Of a DNA stretch of 64,000 bases, positions 19,745 through 35,214 are shown one piece after another; the stretch's first letter is position 1; each line of letters opens with the position of its first letter. This stretch comes from Lepiota brunneoincarnata. Its lineage: Eukaryota; Basidiomycota; Agaricomycetes; Agaricales; Agaricaceae. The position numbers and the translations under genes were made by a program. The stretch covers positions 372,001 to 436,000 of the forward strand of contig JAEBUN010000024.1 in the NCBI GenBank assembly GCA_023014365.1, written 5' to 3'. The notes under the pieces were generated by a model. That model was not told the DNA's origin and searched no databases. It was given only the letters and a program-made list of their open reading frames with translations.

Positions 19745-20703
19745 CTCTCATCCTCCATACCTGTGAAGTGGAGAGAGGTTGCGTGGTTGTCATCAGATAC
19801 TACCATGTGCTCAGTTCTTCAGGTGGGTAAACTATCTCCAAGGAAATTCAATGGTCTCCTTGATCTCAGTTCTCGATTTGGCAACTGGCAATTGCTGATC
19901 TGGGGTAAATCTGGGGGAGAGATTGTTGGAGCCCAAAGTGGCAGATCTGGATCAATCTGGATCAGACTGGATCGGCTGTGCCCAATAAGGGAGCGAAAGC
20001 ACAGGGTACGGTAAGCAGGGAAAGATAACAAAAACAGGTCGAATGTCCCAATTGGGGCCAGGCAACCCCCCACATTGGGAAAGCCCAGTCCAGCATGCTG
20101 CTGGCATACCCTGGGTGAGTACCAGTCATTAGTCCATGGTAGTAGGTTCCTGGGTCCATGGCAAAGGGTGGGGACACTGGGTTTTCTGTGGTGATCCACA
20201 GCTTCCCTTAGGGGTTGCTGATTGGGGGAGGTCCGCCATCCACACTGCAGACTCCTGGGTGGGACTGCATCTGGGCATGCTCTGGGTTTGATCCCCAAAT
20301 GGGTGTTCCACATGACGGTGTGTGGCACAGGCTTGGGGCTGAAACAACTCCATGCTAGGGGTCTCTAGACCCCTGGAGGTGCAATGTGGTTGGCTGTGGG
20401 CAAGGCAGAGACCTGGGACAGGTGGGGATCTGTGCCAGTTGGCACCAGCAAACCACCTGCCCAGGGATGGGAACCCCAGTAGCCAGGGCTCTATACAAAC
20501 TCCCTGGTGAAGCGTGGGCCGTAGCAGGCCGGGACAGTCTCCTGCAATCTGGCTAGAGGGCACTAAATCCTCTGTCGGTTCTCCTGGCTGACTAAGTCAG
20601 GTTAGAGTCTAAGTTGATTCTGGGGTCCAGTACATTATCCAGTGCTTGCCTCACAAGAGCGCAAAGCAATAGGGTCCTCCTTCATGGGAGAGCCCTATAT
20701 CTT

Positions 20704-20720
20704 GTAAATTGGAGATTTAC
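20704..20720 (+). promoter_or_regulatory. SINE 3' hairpin shared with LINE-A
   Basis: A 6 bp perfect stem GTAAAT/ATTTAC with loop TGGAG lies immediately before poly(A). LINE-A has the same loop with a 5 bp stem (15906-15920). LINE-B has AAAT-TGTTG-ATTT (32236-32248). This is the likely reverse-transcriptase recognition element. Confidence 0.7.
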
Positions 20721-21921
20721 AAAAAAAAAAAAAAAGAGGATGGATCTGGGACTTGATTTGGTGTTACCAGCAGTACTGGGCCCAACTCACTTCCTGCATG
20801 ATGTGAATCTGTCACCATTGGTGATTGATCTTGTCTTCCTCCCAATGGCTCGAGATCCGGATCTCAGGCCCTTGATTCACACTCCTCTAACTCTGGTTCT
20901 TCCAGTCACTTGCTTTATAACCAGTGTGATCCATCAAGTTCTGAAGCCCAATAGCAATGAGGAGTCGAAGTTCATGGTGCAGATATATGAAGGGCTGGCC
21001 GCTTTGCGGTTGCCCTTGGACACCCCTGCAGAAGTGGAGTCCATGGCTTCGGCTGTGGTGTGCATCATCTCCCAGGCTTGGAATGCCTTCTCTGAGGAGA
21101 TGTTTCATCCCAACCAGGTAGGCAGCATTTGCCAGAAGTCCATGGAGGGCACCGGGTTGATCCTCACCCACCTCATTCATGTGGGGTGGGCTAGGGGCCT
21201 ACGGACGAGTGTTATCACTTTTGACATCACCCAGCTCTTCCCTTCGCTGAATCATGATATGATTCTAGCGGTGCTATCATGGTCAGGGTTTGTACCAGAG
21301 CTGTTGCGATTCTTCGGCTCCTACTTGGTCAGGAGGTCTACCACTTACCTGTGGAACTCCTTCAGGTCAGACCCCAGGCAGGCTGATGTGGGTGTGGGGC
21401 AGGGTTCTGCTCTGTCGCCAGTCCTATCAGTCTTGTATCTAGCCTCCCTAGTATATCTTTATTACCAGAGGACCCCTGGCCTTGGTGTCAACATGCTTTC
21501 ATATGTCGATGACGGGACCCTTATAGTCCAATCCAAGACCTGGGAGGACAACAGCATGTCTGCCCTGCAGGTGGCTTACTGCTGCATGCATGGGCTCTTT
21601 GACTCTTTTGGCCTCACACTTGAGCATACCAAGTCTGAGGTCTTCCACTTCTCTCGTAGCCCGAGGGCTGCCAACCCACCCATTGACCTGGGCTTCCATC
21701 CGTATACAGGGGATACCCCCTTGAGGCCCAAGCCATTTTGGCAATACTTGGGCTTCTATTTCAATTGCGCTCAACCCTTTCACAAGCATGTACACTACTA
21801 TTCTACCAAGGCATTCTCCACGGTTGGTGCAATGGGGATGCTTGGTAATTCAACCCAGGGGTTGCTTCCCAACCAGAAGTGCCTCCTCTACCAGTCATGC
21901 GTGGTTCCTATTGCCACATAT

Positions 21922-22572
21922 TGTTAGAGCCGGTGCGGGTCGGGACCGAAGCGGAGGGTCGGGGTGGTATCCTTGGTATAAGGTAACCGGGGGACAGGGC
22001 GAAGTCAGTACGTAGACTTCGGGACCGAGGCGGAGTACGTCGGGCGGGGGGTTGGACTTGCGGCCTCAGCTTATGTGCTGTGCCCTCCTACTGTCCTAGT
22101 CCGTATTTCAGGAAGTCGGAGCCGAAGCGGAGCGAGGCAGAAGAGAGGAGAGGATATGGAACAGGGAGCTGGTCCGCTGCTCGATTCGATTATCAGACTG
22201 AGGAGTACAAGCCAAGTACCTACGGTATATATACTACTGGCCTTACGAACTATGACTCGTACTGACTACGTGCGGAGTGAAGCGGAGACCCATATGGTTA
22301 CAAACGGATTACAAACGAAATGGAGACCGGTACGGGTATGGAGACTGGTAACGTATCTTGACTACGGACGGGAAATGGAGACGGGGAAATAGAGACAGCG
22401 AGGTTCAGGTGACCACGGCACGTGTGGAGGTGGTCGCGTGATCGGGGCAGTGGGTTGCGGTCGGAGTGAGTCGGGGCCGAGTCGGAGGGCAGAGGGTTGT
22501 TGTGTGGAACACACGTGGAGTCGAGAAGCCGAAGTTTAAGTGATTAGACTTATAGTTGGCATGGATATGACA
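21922..22572 (-). mobile_element. Solo LTR of the Gypsy-1 family (651 bp), TSD CATAT
   Basis: TG...CA ends (plus strand TGTTAGAGCC to GGATATGACA). CATAT is duplicated at 21917-21921 and 22573-22577, and removing the LTR restores LINE-B RT codons ATYGF. CpG content is much higher than in the LTRs of the complete Gypsy-1. It contains three everted CCG-N3-CGG sites at 21946-21954, 22025-22033 and 22122-22130. Confidence 0.95.
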
Positions 22573-24279: not shown

Positions 24280-24946
24280 TGTTAGAGCCAGTGCGGATCA
24301 GGACTGAAGTGGAGGGTCGGGGTGGTATCCTTGGTGTAAGGTAACCAGGGGACAAGGCGAAAGTCAGTACGTAGACTTTGGGACCGAGGTGGAGTACTTT
24401 GGGCAGGGAGTTGGACTTGCGGCCTCAGCATATGTGCTATACCCTCCTGCTGTCCTAGTCTGTATTTCAGGAAGTCAGAGCCGAAGTGGAGCAAGGCAGA
24501 AGAGAGGAGAGGATATAGAACAGGGAGCTGGTCCGCTGCTCAATTCAATTATCAGACTGAGGAGTACAAGCCAAGTACCTATGGTATGTATATATACTAC
24601 TGGCCTTACGAACTATGACTTGTACTGACTACATGCGGAGCAAAGCGGAGACCGATATGGTTACAAACAGATTACAAATGGTTACAAATGGAATGGAAAC
24701 CGGTACAGGTATGGAGACTGGTAATGTACCCTGACTATGGGTGGAAAATGGAGGACTGGGATATAGAGACACTGAGGGTCAGGTGACTATGGCACATGTA
24801 GAGGTGGTTGCATGACCAGGGCAATGGGTTGTAGTCGGAGTGAGTTGGGGCTGAGTCGGAGGGCAAAGGGTTGTTGCATGGGAGCACACATGGGGTTGAG
24901 AAGCTGAAGTTTAACGATTAGGCTCTGAGTTGGCATGGATATGACA
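24280..24946 (-). repeat. Gypsy-1 3' LTR
   Basis: 667 bp. In the element orientation it begins TGTCATATCC and ends CTCTAACA. The polypurine tract lies just outside it at 24947-24963. Confidence 0.93.
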
Positions 24947-24963
24947 GTGTCCCCCCTTTAGGG
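24947..24963 (-). promoter_or_regulatory. Gypsy-1 3' polypurine tract
   Basis: The minus strand reads CCCTAAAGGGGGGACAC directly before the 3' LTR, which is the expected plus-strand primer site. A 14-nt identical core recurs at 27767-27780. Confidence 0.8.
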
Positions 24964-25021
24964 CTGAGCCTCGAGGCCCAAGGTGGTCTAGACCAGGGCC
25001 CATCAGAAATCTCCACCAAGG

Positions 25022-25028
25022 TATAAAA
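25022..25028 (+). promoter_or_regulatory. TATA box of the antisense accessory gene
   Basis: TATAAAA lies ~50 bp upstream of the ATG at 25080 on the strand opposite to gag-pol, so the accessory gene is likely to have its own promoter. Confidence 0.55.
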
Positions 25029-25079
25029 ACTGGTGAACTGGTTCAGTTTCAAAAAAAAACAACTTGACTGCTTACTCCC

Positions 25080-26170
25080 ATGAGCAGACAACCCCCCCAA
25101 CAACTGACCACCGTGGAGTGCAAGGCGCAATTGTTGAGGGAGAAGGTGGAGTGAGAGGAACAAGAGTGGCTGGAAATTGAGAGGCTGGAGGAGGAGGAGC
25201 AATGAGAGGAGGAGGAGCAGGCAGCAGATGATAGTGCTGCACCAGTGACAAGTGGAGGAGCGGGCAAGGGAGCGTATGGCAGGAAGAAATCAGGCAGCAA
25301 CAAGACGAGGCTGCCAAGGTAAAGTGTTGGGCGATTTGGGCTCACCTCGTTGCAATGACTATGGGGCCTTGTCAACTCATCCATTGGAAGAACCGATGCA
25401 GGTAGATATGGAGGAGTCAGATTCCAAATACATGGATAGGGACAAGGCGAAGGGATGAGGAGGAGGAGGCCTTTGGGGATTCAGGGGATAAGGGTAAGGG
25501 GAAGGCAAAGGCAAGGATGGCCCCACGATGGGGAAATGTGAACATATTCAGGGGTGAGAATCCCTGCTGGAGGTGCCAGTGAGACAAGGTCCTATGTGAG
25601 GTTGCCAGCAGGGTAAGTCATTTTGAGGGTTTCCAGGCTACATACTGATAGTTTTCTAGTAACACCAGGAGTTGCCTGTCGGTGCAGCAGAATGAAGAAA
25701 CAGTGCAGGGGTCAAGAGGAGATGGAGCCAAGCAGGGCCGGGGTGGTGTTGAGCCAGCAATTTGAAGGTAATATAATGATCATTGGTTGTGAGGGTTGCT
25801 GACCAAGTCTCATAGAGTTGAAGAGGCTTGTTGAAGAAGGACACCAGGAGACCCTCAAGCAGGGTCAACATCATGGAGGTGTGGCTTGAAAAGGCCATCG
25901 CTCAGTTAGGGGAGAAGGTGGATAAAGTTGAACTGATGGCTGGCTGCTATGAACAGTTGCAGCGTTGGGAAGCACAGGTGGATGGTAACTGGTTGAGTAG
26001 GGGTATTACTGGAGATGGAGGAGTTGGAGAGCATTGGAGGCATTTTGGAGGAGGAGGTGCGAGGTATGATGGAGGATGTGGCAGGCACCGCCCCGCACCT
26101 CTGGGAACGACACAGGGCAGGTAGTTTATACTTGTCCAATAAATTTTTTGTTTCTTGGTGTGGTGGGTGA
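25080..26170 (+). pseudogene. Antisense accessory gene of Gypsy-1: Glu-rich coil plus zinc-cluster-like protein
   Basis: The ATG at 25080 (MSRQPPQQLTTVECKAQLL) opens a Glu-rich, coiled-coil-like N-terminus with two TGA stops. An acidic/basic middle follows (HPLEEPMQVDMEES; DKGKGKAKARMAPRWGNV). Then comes CWRCQ*DKVLC, a C-x2-C-x6-C block (25565-25597), just before a canonical 47 bp intron-like segment (GTAAGT 25613 to CTAG 25659). After it, a second C-x2-C-x6-C block is visible if one base is treated as an insertion (CxRCSRMKKQC, ~25668-25702). The C-terminus is helical (WLEKAIAQLGEKVDKVELMA; EEEVRGMMEDVAG; HLWERHRAGS) and stops at 26168-26170. Paired C-x2-C-x6-C is the pattern of fungal Zn(II)2Cys6 DNA-binding clusters. 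pol ends at 26183 on the other strand, so the genes converge with 12 bp between stops. This copy is broken by stops and indels. Function is unproven; a regulator of the element is the leading guess. Confidence 0.65.
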
Positions 26171-26182
26171 TCAGTGGAAAAC

Positions 26183-29100
26183 TCAGAGTGAATGGAGGGG
26201 GCCAGGCTTAGTGGGGTAAGAGGAATGGAAGGCCTCTACTAAATCTATGGCATGTTCAAGCTTGGTAGCCGGTAACCACAAAGACTCTTCTTTGGTGTCT
26301 TCATAACCTAACCAAATGACTTTGTAGAGGAGTTTGCATGCACGGCGTCAATCAATCTTTGAGTTGATGATGCGAGTGATCTCATATTCTGGTTTGCCAT
26401 CAATAGAAACTGGTGCAGGTGGCAGGTCCGATCAGGCGGGTATGGTATTAGGTGTGGCCAGTTCAAGCATAGAAACATGGAAAACTGGGTGTACTCCACA
26501 CATGGAGTCAGGGAGTCAGAGGGTGAAGGAGTGGGTACCTGCTTGGGCAATAATTTCATAGGGTCCAAGGAACTTTTTGGAGAGCTTTTTGGAGGGACAG
26601 GTGGTGCTGGAAGAATTGGGCTTTCACAAATACCTTTTGTCCAACCTTGAAGTCCAGAGCAGGGAGTTGGTGGGCAGTCGGCAGAGGTCTGGTAGCATTG
26701 CTGGGCTAGCGCTATTTCAGACTTCAAGGTGGTGTGTAGGTCATCGAGATCAACAGCAAAATGGCAGGCCTGAGCAGAGGCAAGGTTGCATTCAGGATGA
26801 ACTGTGATGTTTGGATGGTATCCTTTATTAGCAAAGAACAGGGAGATACCAGTGGTGGCACTAGGAGCATTGTTGTAAGCAAACTCAGCTAGTGGTAGTA
26901 ATTCGGACCAATTGTCCTGTTGGTAGTTACAGTAGACCTGGAGATATTGTTCCAGGGTCTGGTTGGTGCATTCCATCTGTCTGTTGCCTTCTGGGTGGTA
27001 GCCCGAAGTGAAGTGTAGTTTCATGTCGAGGGCTTGTCCCAATGAGCGGAAGAAGTGAGAGATGAATTTGGAGCCATGGTCAGAGGTAACATGTTTGGGT
27101 ACGCCATGCTTGGAGAAGACGTGGAGGACAAATAGGCAGGCAAGGTCGGAGGAGGTGACAGTATCGTAGGTGGGGATGGATAAGGATTGCTTGGTGAGTC
27201 TGTCGACTATTACTAGGATGGCATCGTAGTGGGAAGTTTCTCGATGAAGTCCATGGAGATTGAATTCCAAGGTCGTTTGGGGATGGGGAGTTGCTTGAGG
27301 AGACCATAGGGGTGGTGGCGCTGGGGTTTAGACCTCATACAGGTGACACAAGACTTACAGAAATCCTTGACGAAGGTGTGGACACTAGGCCAGGTGTATT
27401 CGCACTAGATGAGTTCCAGCGTTTTATTCTGACCAAAGTGGCCGGCTAGGACATGATCAGTGCTTGTACTGAAGGACCCAAAGTTAGAGATTGTCAGCTG
27501 TTGGGGATGTAGATTCTGTTGTCTAGGAGGAGGAAACCTTTGTCGTTAACTGACCAACAGCCTTCTGGGCTAGCAACATGGGTGGAGGTGGTTGGATCTG
27601 CTGGTAGAGTGGTGAGGATATTGTGGTGTAGCTGGTTGAGATCCATGACTACAGCTGTGCGAAGGGAAGGGGCATAAAGAGTGGTGGCTGTGGACAGAGG
27701 CTGCAAGCTGTTCGTGGGTGAATATGGGTCAGAAATTGTGCGGGTTGACTGATGCATAGTCGCTATTCCCCCCTTTAGGGTAGATGTCCCATCATCTAGT
27801 TAGGGCATCAGGCTTGGTGCCGAGACTGGCCAGGTCAGAACTGGATGACTGAGGTGGAATTGGGACAGGAACTTGGACCAACGAGCTTGGCGGCGAGTGA
27901 GGATTTTGGTGGTGCAGAAGTATTCAAGGTTTTTGTGGTCAGTGACTACATCAATAGTAAGAGGGGCACCCTCAAGATAGTGCTGCCAGATACAAAAAGC
28001 CTCAAATATCACCAGGAGTTCCTTATTGTGGGTGTCATAATTAAGTTCAGCCATGTTAAAGGTGTAGGAATGGAATGCAACAGGGTGGACCTCCCCATCA
28101 TCAGTGATGATAGAGAGGATAGCCACAAGCGCATAGTCAGAGGCGTTGGTCTCGACAATGATCTGAGCGTCAGGGGCCCAAGGAGTGAGGACAGGAGCAG
28201 ATATGAATGCTTCCTTCAGGGAGTTAAAGGCTTTGCAACATTTGTCAGTGAAATTCCATTTCACGTCTTTGCAGGTGAGGTGGGTGAGCAGAACAACAAT
28301 GTTGGAATAACCTATGAATGAAGCAACTGATAGAAATTTGTGAAACCTAAGAAGGACTGGATGTCCTTGACTTTCTTAGGTTTAGGCCACTCCTGGACTG
28401 GTCTTGACCTTAGATTGGTCCATTTGGAGACCGTCAGGGAAAGAATGTAGCCAAGATATTCCACTGTGTCAGAGTGGAACTGGCATTTGTTGGGGCAGGT
28501 GTATAGACCATGTTGGCAGGAGCCGCTTAAGGACCTCCTTGACTTGGTCACGATGGATACTATGATTGTCAGAGTATATCAGAATGTTGTCAAGGTAAAT
28601 AGTAATGCAGATGTTGAGCATGTCCTTGAATATATCATTCATGAACCGCTGGAAGGTGGTGGGGGTGTTGGTGAGGCTGAAAGGCATAACCATCCATTTG
28701 AAGGAGCTGTAGTGGGTCTGAAAGGCGGTCTTTCATTCATCACTGTCAGCAATGTGGACAAGATGGTAAGCATGACAGAGGTCAATTTTGGTATATACAC
28801 GGGCTTTGCGAAGGGGAGTCTAAGAGGTTGGAGATGAGCGGAAGGGGGTAATGGTCCTTCTTAGTAATACAGTTGAGACCTCTAAAATCAACACATAAAT
28901 GCAGGGAGCCATCCTTTTTCTTTACGAAGAGGACCAGGGCTCCATGAGGAGAAGTGGAGGGGCAAATGAAGCCAATAGATAAATGTTCGTCAATGAAATC
29001 ATGTAGAGCTCCAAGCTCTGATTGTGAAAGGGAGTAAATGGTACTGACCGGAGGTTGACTGCTGTCCTCAAGGTTAATCTGGAGGTCATAAGGGCGGTGT

Positions 29101-31448: not shown

Positions 31449-32117
31449 TGTTAGAGCCGGTGCAGATCAGGACCAAAGTGGAGGGTTGGGGTGGTATCCT
31501 TGGTGTAAGGTAACCAGGGGACAGGGCAAAGTCAGTACGTAGACTTCGGGACCGAGGCAGGAGTACGTCGGGCGGGGAGTTGGACTTGCAGCCTCAGCGT
31601 ATGTGCTGTGCCCTCCTACTGTCCTAGTCCGTATTTCAGGAAGTTGGGGCCAAAGCGGAGCAAGGCAGAAGAGAGGAGAGGATAGAGAACAGGGAGCTGG
31701 TCCGCTGCTCAATTTGATTATCAGACTGAGGAGTACAAGCCAAGTACCTACTGGTATGTATATATACTACTGGCTTTACAAACTATGACTTGTACTGACT
31801 ACGTGCAGAGCAAAGTGGAGACCAATATGGTTACAAACAGATTACAAACAGTTACAAATGGAATGGAAACCAGTACAGGTATGGAGACTGGTAACGTACC
31901 CTGACTACAGGCAGAAAATGGAGAACTGGGATATAGAGACACTGAGGGTCAGGTGACTATGGCACATGTGGAGGTGGTTCACGTGACTGGGGCAATGGGT
32001 TGTAGTTGGAGCAAGTTGGGGCCAAGTCAGAGGGCAAAGGGTTGTTGCGTGGGAGCACACATGGGGTCGAGAAGCCGAAGTTTAACAATTAGGCTCTGAG
32101 TTGGCATGGATATGACA
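31449..32117 (-). repeat. Gypsy-1 5' LTR
   Basis: 669 bp with TG...CA ends. In sense orientation it has TATATATAC ~34 nt before AGTCTGATA, the putative transcript start region. Right flank AGTGT (32118-32122) completes the target duplication. Confidence 0.92.
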
Positions 32118-32265
32118 AGTGTAACCTTTCGAAGTCAGCGGGACTCTCTTCCCTACCTTTATTGGTAGTTATACCATGTATTAGTTGCCTTGTATGTAGC
32201 TAGTGCATGTGGACTGTGTTTGAGCACCACATTATAAATTGTTGATTTCAAAAAAAAAAAAAAAA

Positions 32266-35214
32266 GAAAGCAGGCTCTGATGAACAGGGTGGACAAAAAT
32301 ACTTGAAAAATCACAAATCTCCACCCCTCTGGATTCACACTAGCCCAGCTGGATGAAGAACTGGCTTCCATGGCTCTCATCAGAGCCCTCCCTGCTAAGG
32401 AATTCTCCTCATTCACCTCTTCCCTCCTGCTCATGGACAAGCTTGGCAAGGCTTCTGTGCACCAGGCTTTCATCACAGAGGATGTTCAATGTTGTCGATG
32501 TGCTGGGGACACTGCAGGCTCCTCCCAGGCACTGGCAACACACTCTGCACCCACTCCTTCATCCAGGAAATGCAAATTTTGTGACAAGCCTGGCCACACA
32601 CTGCTCAAGTGCTACTCCTTTTTGGATGCCCAAAAGGATGCATGCAAAAACACATCGAAATTGCACTCTACACAGCCCAGGAACCGTGCCAACAAGGCCC
32701 AGGATGTGTCACAAGACTCCCTGCCCTCTCCTGCATCCGAAAATGTGCTCAGCACCACAGAATTTGCTGGAAACACAAGTATAACCTCACCCACACCTTC
32801 CCAGCTCTCCTCTGACATTGATTGGCTTGCAGTCTCAGGGGCTACTTCTCATATGACCCTACATCATCACTGGATGCATTCCTATGCTCCCCTTTGCATT
32901 CCTGTCCAGTTAGCTGATGATTCAGTCATTTACTCAGCTGGAGTGGGCTCTGGTGTTTCAGCCAGTTGTAGGGGGGAAAGCGATGAGTGCAGTGCAGTTT
33001 TCACAAGTTCTCCATGTTCCTCAGCTTCAGAGCAATCTCCTGTCTTGCCTCTACCTTACTAGGCAGTAAAGGTCTTAATATACACATCTCTGCTTTGTCT
33101 ATGGACTTCCAGAGGGATAGGAAGACTCTGTTTTGTGCTAGGATCTGTCCTAACAACACTACTGTGCTTGAGGGGGTCACCATTGCTTCCTGGCTTGCTT
33201 CTGCAGCCTCTATCTCTCTCCCTCTTGACTTGTCACTTTGGCACAGAAGGCTCATCCATCAGAACTATGCTGATGTGAAGAAAATGATCTCCTGGCAATT
33301 GGTGACTGGTCTCACTCTCACCTCTCAGACACCTCCCGATCCTGTTTGTGAACCTTGCTTGGCTGGCAAGATGCACGCTCCCTCATTTCCTCCCTTGACC
33401 AATCATACACATGCTGCCACTTGATCTTGTGCACTCAGATCTTCATGGACCACTCCCTGTACCTACCAGTCAAGGTTACAAGTACTGGATCACATTCATT
33501 GATGACTCAACACAATTCCGAGCAGCTTACTTCCTAAAGAAGAAATTGGAGGCATTTGATACATTTTGCACTTTCAAGTCTTGGGCAGAGAACCAGCTCT
33601 CCCTGCAAGATTCGTGCACTTTAGGATGATAAAGGGGGTGAATACATGTCTAATGCCTTCATCAAATTCACCACTGACTGTGGGATTGAGTGGAGACACT
33701 CTGTATGCAACTGGCCCCAACAGAATGGTTTAGCCAAATGCACTAATCGGACAATGGGTGAGCATATTACTGCAATGCTTGCTGAAGCCCATCTCCCTCC
33801 TTCATTTTGGGGTGAATGCCTCACTGCGATGATTCATGTCTGGAATTGCCTCCCTACTGCTCCCCTTCCCAACACCACTCCTTATGAGACCTTTTACAAA
33901 CATAAGCCTGATGTTGCTCACCTACGAGTCTGGGGGTGCACTGTGTATGTTCATGTGCAGAAAGACAAGTGGATGTCACTTGGACCACACATGCAACAGT
34001 GTGTATTCATTGGCTATCCTGTTGGCTACAAGGCATGGAGGTTTTACAATCCTGTGACTAAACAAGTTGTGATCTCAGAGAGAGCTGACTTTGACAAACG
34101 GCACTTTCCTGGACTGTCTAGTGTGCAGATGACTGCACCACGTCCACTGGCTGTCCCATCTGCTCTGTCTAACTTCCCCTCACATTCCAACTCCAATCCA
34201 GGATTTACTCCTCCACCCACTGCACCAACTCTATCACCACCCTCCTCTCCGCATTCTAAGGGAGTACCACCTCTTGACGATGAGGGGGTGTCTCCAGTCA
34301 TTCCATCCATTCCTATTCATCCTCCTCAAGATGTACCACTTCCTGCTCCACCTCCTATCATTCCTCCTGTTCCTGCGCCTCCTCTTGATGTTGCACCACC
34401 TCCTGTACCACCATCACTCCCAACTGCTCCATGATGCTCTGCACATGTGAGACGGTCACCTGGTGAGTGGTGGAAGGTCAGAGATCCTCCACCTCCTGTC
34501 CCTGACAGTGATGATGAGGAGGAAGCTGATCTAGCTGTTGAGGATGGCTTTCAAGATGTTGAGTTTGCTGGCAACACAGAGGACCCAGGCTTCCATACCT
34601 TCAAGGCTGCAATGTCTGCACCTGATGGGACTCAATGGCAAGGTGCCTGCAATGATGAGATGATGTCTTTGATGGGTAACAACACTTGGCAAATCGTTGA
34701 GCTTCCCTCCTGGCAAGACAGCTATCAACTCAGGTTGGGTGTTCTGAGTCAAGCTCAAGGCTGATGGCTCCGTGGAGTGCTACAAGGCTAGATTGGTCAC
34801 AAAAGGGTACTCTTAATGCCCTGGATTTGACTATACTGAAGTCTTTGCTCCCACATATCGCCCTGCATCCCTATGCCTCATTCTGGCCTTGGAAGCCAAA
34901 GAAGGCTATTCACTTCATTCTGTTGACATTTCATCTGCCTTCACTTATGGGGACTTGGATGAAGAGATCGACATGCGCCAACCTGAAGGCTACCACAAGA
35001 GAGGTCCTAACCATGTTTGCAAGCTCACCAAGTCGCTCTATGGCCTCAAACAGGCTACTTGACAGTGGAACAAAAAGCTATATGACATCTTTAGCTCTCT
35101 GGACTACACCAAGCTCAAGTCAGACAACTCTGTGTATGTTTACAGTAAGGGCGATGTTCATGTTATTGTTCCCATCTTCATTGATGACATCACACTTGTG
35201 TCCAAGAACAATCC
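32266..35214 (+). mobile_element. Copia-1: internal fragment of a Ty1/copia element, no LTRs
   Basis: It lies between a LINE-B poly(A) on the left and an inverted LINE-B poly(T) on the right. It carries gag 3' end, protease, integrase and the first part of RT; RT C-terminus, RNase H and both LTRs are absent. Confidence 0.88.
32370..35214 (+). pseudogene. Copia-1 gag-pol remnant
   Basis: Gag end with zinc knuckle CKFCDKPGHTLLKC. The protease site reads WLAVSGATSHMT, so the usual Asp is Val. Integrase: LSLWHRRLIHQNY, then CEPCLAGKMHAPSFP, LVHSDLHGPL, YWITFIDDSTQFRAAYFLKK. After stops near 33629 come CNWPQQNGLAKCTNRTMGEH, PHMQQCVFIGYPVGYKAWRF and a Pro-rich linker (34140-34434). RT: FDYTEVFAPTYRPASLCLIL, HSVDISSAFTYGDLDEEI, KSLYGLKQAT*QWN and FIDDITLVSKNN at the right edge. 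In-frame stops include TGA where Arg is expected after KQAT and TAA where Gln is expected before CPGFDY; both fit C-to-T changes. At least four frame breaks are present. Confidence 0.87.

What the first reader, a model, noticed from the sequence alone, without database searches (positions are those of the whole stretch)
25022..26185. Retrotransposon-embedded antisense gene with a Zn2Cys6-like double C-x2-C-x6-C motif
Between the chromodomain and the 3' LTR of Gypsy-1 lies a plus-strand gene, opposite to gag-pol. It has its own TATA box (25022), an ATG 50 bp downstream, a Glu-rich coil, C-x2-C-x6-C before an intron-like GTAAGT...CTAG segment, a second C-x2-C-x6-C after it (allowing one inserted base), and a helical C-terminus. 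Its stop is only 12 bp from the pol stop, so the two genes converge compactly. Zn(II)2Cys6 clusters are known fungal DNA-binding domains. An LTR element carrying one in antisense is unusual and could regulate its own LTR, its silencing or its host. This copy is broken, so the family must be judged from relatives.
Basis: partly seen in the sequence, partly recalled or inferred. Interest (0 to 1): 0.86.

Follow-up and report, generated by a model that had tools for sequence, protein, structure and literature searches.

The report
Backwards zinc-cluster gene in fungal retrotransposon
A family of fungal jumping elements carries, on the opposite strand to its own genes, a working-looking three-part gene for a protein with a zinc-holding motif like that of fungal gene switches, which suggests that these elements carry their own regulator.

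Summary
Window 25080-26124 is a decayed copy of a real antisense gene in a chromodomain Ty3/gypsy element: TATA box, three exons, two GT-AG introns, convergent with pol (58 bp between stops, not 12). The genome holds many copies (199 protein matches). In 30 of 30 nearest copies, window's included, it lies between LTR and pol end. Of 50 copies read, 13 encode an uninterrupted 315-334 aa protein; across them median dN/dS is 0.19, against 1.2-1.5 in the wrong frames. All 13 keep C-x2-C-x6-C-x9-C-x2-C-x6-C. Exon 3 is predicted as one long helix. A second gypsy family in the same genome, without DNA match to the first, has its own antisense, intron-containing six-cysteine gene at the same place (dN/dS 0.14, one pair). 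CGG-N6/7-CCG palindromes, the kind of site that fungal Zn2Cys6 dimers bind, lie 18-38 bp upstream of the TATA box. Best reading: an element-encoded Zn2Cys6-like regulator of its own promoter region, comparable in layout to plant Retand/Grande antisense genes and HTLV-1 HBZ. DNA binding and regulation are inferred; Pfam Zn_clus scores stay below cut-off.

The parts
24280..24950 (-). 3' LTR of the gypsy element (element reads on the - strand)
   Evidence: 91.1% identical over 675 aligned bases to the other LTR; repeats D1-D7
24951..24959 (-). polypurine tract next to the 3' LTR
   Evidence: CCCCCCTTT on + strand; C-run plus TTT in all 15 leaders aligned
24984..24995 (.). decayed palindrome A, at the place where 11 of 15 other leaders read CGG-N6-CCG
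25004..25015 (.). decayed palindrome B, at the place where 11 of 15 other leaders read CGG-N6/7-CCG
25022..25028 (+). TATA box of the antisense gene
   Evidence: TATAAA followed by ATGAGC at 35-70 nt in 42 of 50 copies
25080..25612 (+). antisense gene exon 1 (Glu/Arg-rich N-terminus and first half of the cysteine cluster; broken here)
25565..25597 (+). first C-x2-C-x6-C
25613..25659 (+). intron 1, 47 nt, GT-AG
   Evidence: intact copies 47-51 nt
25660..25767 (+). antisense gene exon 2 (second half of the cluster; 108 nt here, 107 nt in all 13 intact copies)
25673..25706 (+). second C-x2-C-x6-C, frame-shifted in this copy
25768..25815 (+). intron 2, 48 nt, GT-AG
25816..26124 (+). antisense gene exon 3 with stop
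   Evidence: helix predicted from related copies
26138..26143 (+). AATAAA, possible polyadenylation signal of the antisense gene
   Evidence: sequence
26183..26185 (-). pol stop codon
26183..29984 (-). pol remnants: protease, RNase H, integrase
   Evidence: full domain order incl. chromodomain in the related copy L085
31449..32122 (-). 5' LTR of the element

Best explanation
The window holds a decayed copy of an accessory gene that a chromodomain Ty3/gypsy element carries between pol and its 3' LTR, antisense to gag-pol. Shown by computation: the gene has a TATA box, three exons and two short introns, recurs in many elements and several subfamilies, and is kept by purifying selection, with the cysteine-cluster segment the most constrained in 4 of 6 pairs looked at. 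Inferred: because it is antisense, its introns are not recognised in the genomic RNA and so survive retrotransposition. Inferred: the protein is a nuclear Zn2Cys6-like DNA-binding factor with an acidic, Glu-rich N-terminus and a C-terminal helix (predicted) that dimerises. It binds as a dimer to the CGG-N6/7-CCG palindromes 18-38 bp upstream of its own TATA box, beside the polypurine tract and 3' LTR. There it would regulate its own transcript and, through convergent transcription or LTR-proximal binding, the balance of sense and antisense expression. A second gypsy family with an antisense six-cysteine gene suggests that such elements gain repeatedly from carrying this kind of regulator. My estimates: real conserved antisense coding gene 0.97; zinc cluster of Zn2Cys6 type 0.85; binds its own leader 0.5; autoregulation or LTR control as main role 0.4.
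For: Copies: 41 matches for the gene DNA (40 of 202 candidates scored) and 199 protein matches, whole-gene or single-exon (124 of 333 candidates scored). Context: LTR - antisense gene - pol end in the same order in 30 of 30 copies, the window's included; pol end after the gene in 15 of 20 subfamily stretches (one by only 29 bases), the other five ending at or near the gene's end. Frames: 13 of 50 copies intact over three exons; exon 1 length 536-587 nt, always 2 mod 3, exon 2 always 107 nt, introns 47-51 nt (partly implied by choosing intact frames). Selection: median dN/dS 0.19 over 71 of 78 pairs (those with dS above 0.1), versus 1.24 and 1.46 in the two shifted frames. Cysteines: exactly six, all in the motif, in the one intact protein tested; the cluster is present in 13 of 13. 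Helix after the cluster: exon 3, residues 2-60. Operator: CGG-N6/7-CCG at least once in 15 of 15 leaders, 25 sites in all; 6 of 5000 column shuffles reach 25, and 18 of 1500 when the spacer is free. In four copies scanned, N6 sites occur in the leader and none in the LTR. Literature: zinc-cluster proteins typically bind pairs of CGG triplets as homodimers with a downstream coiled coil (PMC5559640, passages). Second family.
Against: Pfam Zn_clus does not reach its 21-bit cut-off (12.7 and 8.5 bits; best E 0.045). No solved structure is matched convincingly. The AlphaFold model of the family-2 cluster is of no use (mean pLDDT 50.9), and the helix model is a monomer, so dimerisation is untested. 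Palindromes A and B are each missing in 4 of 15 leaders; L097, the leader of intact L074, was dropped because no TATA-ATG was found in it. The column shuffle breaks dinucleotide context and the leaders are related; with dinucleotide shuffles, one or more such sites appear in 8-20% of single leaders, two in 0.1-1.4%. Two of the four LTRs scanned hold one N7 site, and other spacings occur there. Family 2 shows no such sites in the stretch looked at. The script required two introns, so that all 13 intact copies keep both is true by construction; intronless copies were not sought. No expression evidence of any kind. In family 1 the basic loop is in the unusual half.
Confidence: 0.6

Rival explanations
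1. The antisense protein is a conserved element gene, but it does not act on its own promoter; it works elsewhere, for example on host silencing, on nuclear entry of the element or on host promoters.
For: Selection is shown for the protein, not for any target. The CGG sites are not both kept in every copy.
Against: CGG palindromes recur in the leader beyond most column shuffles.
Confidence: 0.25
2. It is a nucleic-acid chaperone or zinc-knuckle-like structural protein rather than a transcription factor.
For: The cluster scores below the Pfam cut-off and the protein is highly charged.
Against: Spacing x2-x6-x9-x2-x6 fits Zn2Cys6, not CCHC knuckles (patterns recalled); Zn_clus is the only Pfam family matched by 5 of 5 proteins; a long helix follows the cluster.
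Confidence: 0.1
3. Only the act of antisense transcription matters (dsRNA or interference); the protein is irrelevant.
For: Convergent arrangement with pol, 58 bp apart; such a role is discussed for plant elements (passages of PMC7264820).
Against: dN/dS about 0.19 in frame against more than 1 out of frame.
Confidence: 0.03
4. A chance open frame or a passenger host gene without role.
For: The window copy itself is broken.
Against: Present in many copies and subfamilies, purifying selection, second family with the same layout.
Confidence: 0.02

Closest known systems
Antisense additional ORFs between pol and 3' LTR (aORF-3R) of plant Ty3/gypsy elements: Retand TRP28 genes, maize Grande GENE23, rice RIRE2
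   Same: Same place, same antisense orientation, present in most copies; nuclear localisation (GENE23) or possible DNA binding (TRP28) reported (PMC11963269 passages; PMC7264820 passages).
   Different: Fungal host; Zn2Cys6-like cluster instead of TRP28; two introns (the word intron has no occurrence in the main text of either paper).
HTLV-1 HBZ (antisense retroviral gene; passages, bZIP and splicing recalled)
   Same: Antisense gene at the 3' end for a nuclear protein.
   Different: bZIP instead of zinc cluster; antisense promoter inside the 3' LTR, here a TATA promoter in the internal region beside the polypurine tract.
Fungal Zn2Cys6 (zinc cluster) transcription factors, PF00172, for example Gal4 and Ppr1
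   Same: Six cysteines with fitting spacing; helix after the cluster (predicted); CGG palindromes as candidate sites.
   Different: Below Pfam cut-off; in family 1 the Lys-rich loop is in the second half; encoded by a retrotransposon.
Fungal chromoviruses (Ty3/gypsy with chromodomain)
   Same: Protease, RT, RNase H, integrase, chromodomain in order.
   Different: Antisense accessory gene; the survey of fungal LTR elements PMC3248453 has no occurrence of antisense or zinc in its main text (term search only).

Membership tests
Zn2Cys6 binuclear cluster (PF00172) | C-x2-C-x6-C-x5..12-C-x2-C-x6..8-C (pattern recalled) | tested here: met
   spacing x2-x6-x9-x2-x6, cluster in 13 of 13
Zn2Cys6 binuclear cluster (PF00172) | score over Pfam gathering cut-off (21 bits) | tested here: not met
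   12.7 and 8.5 bits; 5 of 5 matched, best E 0.045; family 2 exon 17.1 bits
Zn2Cys6 binuclear cluster (PF00172) | lysine-rich recognition loop between Cys 2 and Cys 3 | tested here: inconclusive
   family 1: half 1 scores better as loop 2 in 4 of 4 variants, half 2 better as loop 1 in 3 of 3, small margins; family 2 in usual order (12 host domains)
Zn2Cys6 binuclear cluster (PF00172) | downstream coiled-coil dimer helix | tested here: inconclusive
   one 59-residue helix predicted in exon 3 with high confidence; dimer not modelled
Zn2Cys6 binuclear cluster (PF00172) | zinc and CGG binding | not testable with these tools
   needs protein; candidate sites
aORF-3R of Ty3/gypsy elements | ORF between pol and 3' LTR, antisense, in most copies | tested here: met
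   (30 of 30, copies found by the gene itself)
aORF-3R of Ty3/gypsy elements | TRP28 domain (Retand lineage) | tested here: not met
   PF04195 not among the matches at E up to 10
Ty3/gypsy chromovirus | PR-RT-RH-IN-chromodomain | tested here: met
   on related copy L085; window remnants
HBZ-like antisense retroviral gene | promoter within 3' LTR and bZIP domain | tested here: not met
   TATA at 25022 lies outside the LTR; no bZIP match

The most novel reading that the evidence does not exclude
At least two unrelated gypsy lineages of one fungus have each taken up an antisense, intron-containing zinc-cluster regulator at the pol-3' LTR junction. In the first, the two halves of the cluster are in swapped order and the protein controls its own promoter through tandem CGG-N6/7-CCG operators: a HBZ-like self-regulating circuit in fungal retrotransposons.
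Probability: 0.4. Interest if true: 0.88.

Novelty: new variant of a known kind. Interest (0 to 1): 0.74.

Why it matters
Antisense accessory genes are known from plant gypsy elements and from retroviruses, but their function in retrotransposons is open. A fungal version with a recognisable zinc cluster, defined exons, a compact TATA promoter and candidate operator sites in the same 60 bp makes the question directly testable in ordinary reporter and binding assays. The antisense layout also offers an explanation of how a retrotransposon can keep introns. Recurrence in a second family suggests a general strategy of fungal elements rather than one accident.

Tried and rejected
Protein database: the full intact protein found no relative at E 0.001 (7995 candidates scored); exon 3 alone found one of 10 candidates (P0001, 106 aa, public ENA contig of 1275 bases, 58% identical, close to the L066 type); the family-2 exon found none (2 candidates). 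Viral contigs: 600 pattern stretches, none a relative. Profile against solved structures: only weak unrelated matches, best E 0.2; family-2 exon: RSC30 at E 5.4, not significant. Family 1 and 2 clusters align in register but weakly (probability 1.6, E 0.031 for one comparison), so common origin is not claimed. Fold of the family-2 cluster: pLDDT 50.9, dropped without fold search; the exon-3 helix was not searched either, as a lone helix matches anything. Family 2: of five divergent copies fetched, L090 is intact over the part read, L089 has one stop, L086 is rearranged, L088 matches over 210 bases only and L087 not at all; its dN/dS is one pair with a broken copy. Its leader shows no TATA of the type sought and no N6 palindrome in L062 2190-3400, so the operator idea rests on family 1 alone; its first exons were not resolved. 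Around 30 Zn_clus loci (L001-L030) four pol pieces gave no match within 1.5 kb. L052/L085 has an open 1286-aa pol, but no second LTR was found in L085 and another element follows, so no LTR pair could be dated there. Copies L040, L047, L056, L059 gave partial or misplaced models and were not counted; L081 was cut by the stretch and L084 differs at the C-terminus, both left out of dN/dS. The 20 subfamily copies were hand-picked for diversity, so 11 of 20 intact is not a random rate. A host gene ancestor was not searched, because element copies fill the search.

Paper searches for fungal antisense zinc-cluster genes; none listed such a report in titles or abstract starts. Most subscription papers are not held, so absence in print is not proven. 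Passages were seen in PMC11963269, PMC7264820, PMC5559640, PMC4245848 and PMC3248453; no whole text was read.
Full report
What was checked. The window is part of a 55.6-Mb genome in 95 contigs held as G000; its many Zn_clus domains and short GT-AG introns point to a fungus, but the species was not identified. The finding lies inside a gypsy element that reads on the - strand: LTRs at 24280-24950 and 31449-32122 are 91.1% identical, and protease, RNase H and integrase remnants lie between. The gap to the pol stop is 58 bp, not 12. The window copy is broken by stops and a frame shift and has lost most of its CpG (0.29 against about 1 in two intact copies).

The gene in other copies. Searching the genome with the gene's DNA gave 41 matches, 40 of 202 candidates being scored. 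The 30 best copies, window copy included, all show LTR, antisense gene and pol end in the same order and orientation. With the protein of one intact copy, 199 matches (whole-gene or single-exon) were found, 124 of 333 candidates scored; the rows listed run from 64 to 100% identity, so there are several subfamilies. I read 20 further copies, chosen for diversity. Of these 50, 13 have an uninterrupted three-exon frame: 2 of the 30 nearest and 11 of the 20 chosen. Introns differ in sequence between subfamilies but keep place and phase; exon 1 varies between 536 and 587 nt always by whole codons, exon 2 is always 107 nt, introns are 47-51 nt. Choosing intact frames implies part of this regularity, and the script required two introns. 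Pol end follows the gene in 15 of the 20, once by only 29 bases. The related copy L085 has an open 1286-aa pol with protease, RT, RNase H, integrase and chromodomain. Some copies (L070, L071) join an exon 1 of one type to an exon 3 of another, as expected from template switching between subfamilies.

Selection. For the 13 intact copies, 71 of 78 pairs have dS above 0.1; their median dN/dS is 0.19, while the same alignment read in the two other frames gives 1.24 and 1.46. In six chosen pairs the ratio for the whole protein is 0.17-0.28 with bootstrap upper limits of 0.24-0.41. The zinc-cluster segment gives 0.03-0.22, the lowest of the three segments in 4 of 6 pairs, with wide limits in three. 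All 13 were chosen for having no stops, which affects nonsense changes only. The intact protein tested has exactly six cysteines, all within the motif; 0 of 200000 shuffles of its residues give such a motif.

What the protein is. The spacing C-x2-C-x6-C-x9-C-x2-C-x6-C fits the Zn2Cys6 pattern. Pfam Zn_clus is the one family matched by 5 of 5 proteins scanned, but weakly (best E 0.045; 12.7 bits against a cut-off of 21). Compared with 12 host domains, the first half looks more like a normal second half and the second half (CRRCSKMKKRC) more like a normal first, DNA-contacting half; margins are small. This may mean a cluster with swapped halves and explain the low Pfam score. A paper passage states that two lysines between Cys 2 and Cys 3 make the base contacts in Gal4 and Ppr1 (PMC4245848). 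About 20 residues after the cluster, exon 3 begins with a helix predicted over residues 2-60 with high confidence, followed by a low-confidence acidic tail (mean pLDDT 71.7). This suits a dimerising coiled coil, but only a monomer was modelled.

Second family. The genome search for Zn_clus also showed a group of near-identical matches. Four copies were read (L061-L064). They belong to another LTR element with 1285-bp LTRs, five pairs of which lie about 12.6 kb apart. An integrase frame reads on the - strand, and between its end and the 3' LTR a plus-strand gene with SRCTTCAARKLECEPLGKGKKCRSCDLYNYPC is read over two GT-AG introns. Of five more divergent copies, one is intact over the part read, one has a single stop, and three are rearranged or lack the gene region. 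L062 against L089, the copy with one stop (about 80% identical DNA), gives dN/dS 0.14 in frame and 1.48 and 2.04 out of frame. L060 and L061-L064 show no DNA match, and family 2 has the usual order of halves. So the layout, an antisense six-cysteine gene between pol and 3' LTR, occurs twice in one genome.

Candidate operator. Upstream of the TATA box lie CGG-N6/7-CCG palindromes. Among 15 leaders (12 from diverse copies, one further leader without TATA-ATG dropped, plus L052, L060, L049) each has at least one; site A at -38 is present in 11, site B at -18/-19 in 11. The 25 sites counted are reached by 6 of 5000 column shuffles, and by 18 of 1500 when any neighbouring pair of spacers may be the best; dinucleotide shuffles of four single leaders give one or more sites in 8-20% and two in 0.1-1.4%. 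In four copies scanned, N6 sites occur in the leader and none in the LTR, though one N7 site (two copies) and other spacings do occur in the LTR. Zinc-cluster dimers typically bind paired CGG triplets (PMC5559640 passage). In the window both palindromes are decayed at their ends. Family 2 shows no comparable sites in the stretch looked at.

How it probably works. Shown by computation: a conserved antisense coding gene in an LTR element, with TATA box, two introns and a selected cysteine cluster. Inferred: RNA polymerase II starts at the TATA box beside the 3' LTR, the transcript is spliced, and the protein returns to the nucleus, dimerises and binds the leader palindromes. There it sets its own level and, lying beside the 3' LTR and converging on pol, the balance between sense and antisense expression of the element. 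Introns could persist because the RNA that is reverse-transcribed is the other strand. The strongest doubt concerns the target, not the gene.

Place among known things. [quoted passage not shown] HTLV-1 HBZ is the retroviral parallel. The fungal case shares location and orientation, but not the domain, and it has introns. The survey of fungal LTR elements (PMC3248453) has no occurrence of antisense or zinc in its main text (term search), and seven paper searches listed no fungal case. I therefore rate it a new variant of a known kind.

Noticed in passing
window 21918-22572: A third copy of the same LTR family, 2.36 kb from the 3' LTR of the element (repeats D1, D2, D4-D7), perhaps a solo LTR or a remnant of a nested element.
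   Followed up: no
window 20614-21927 and 32370-33062: A reverse transcriptase frame (RVT_1; LINE type is my guess) and a copia-type Pol_BBD frame (type recalled) flank the gypsy element.
   Followed up: no
L062 5064-5657: A further plus-strand open frame of 197 aa between the zinc-cluster gene and pol of the second gypsy family, perhaps a second antisense gene (no Pfam match).
   Followed up: no
L070, L071: Mosaic copies: exon 1 of one subfamily with exon 3 of another, evidence of recombination between element subfamilies.
   Followed up: partly
L085 4408-6399: Next to the open pol lies a different chromodomain element end with a long acidic tail (664-aa frame).
   Followed up: no
C11 and C2 Zn_clus rows (L012, L015, L019, L026, L029, L030): Several similar zinc-cluster genes with a GAC-x2-C start lie close together on two contigs, a local family.
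   Followed up: no
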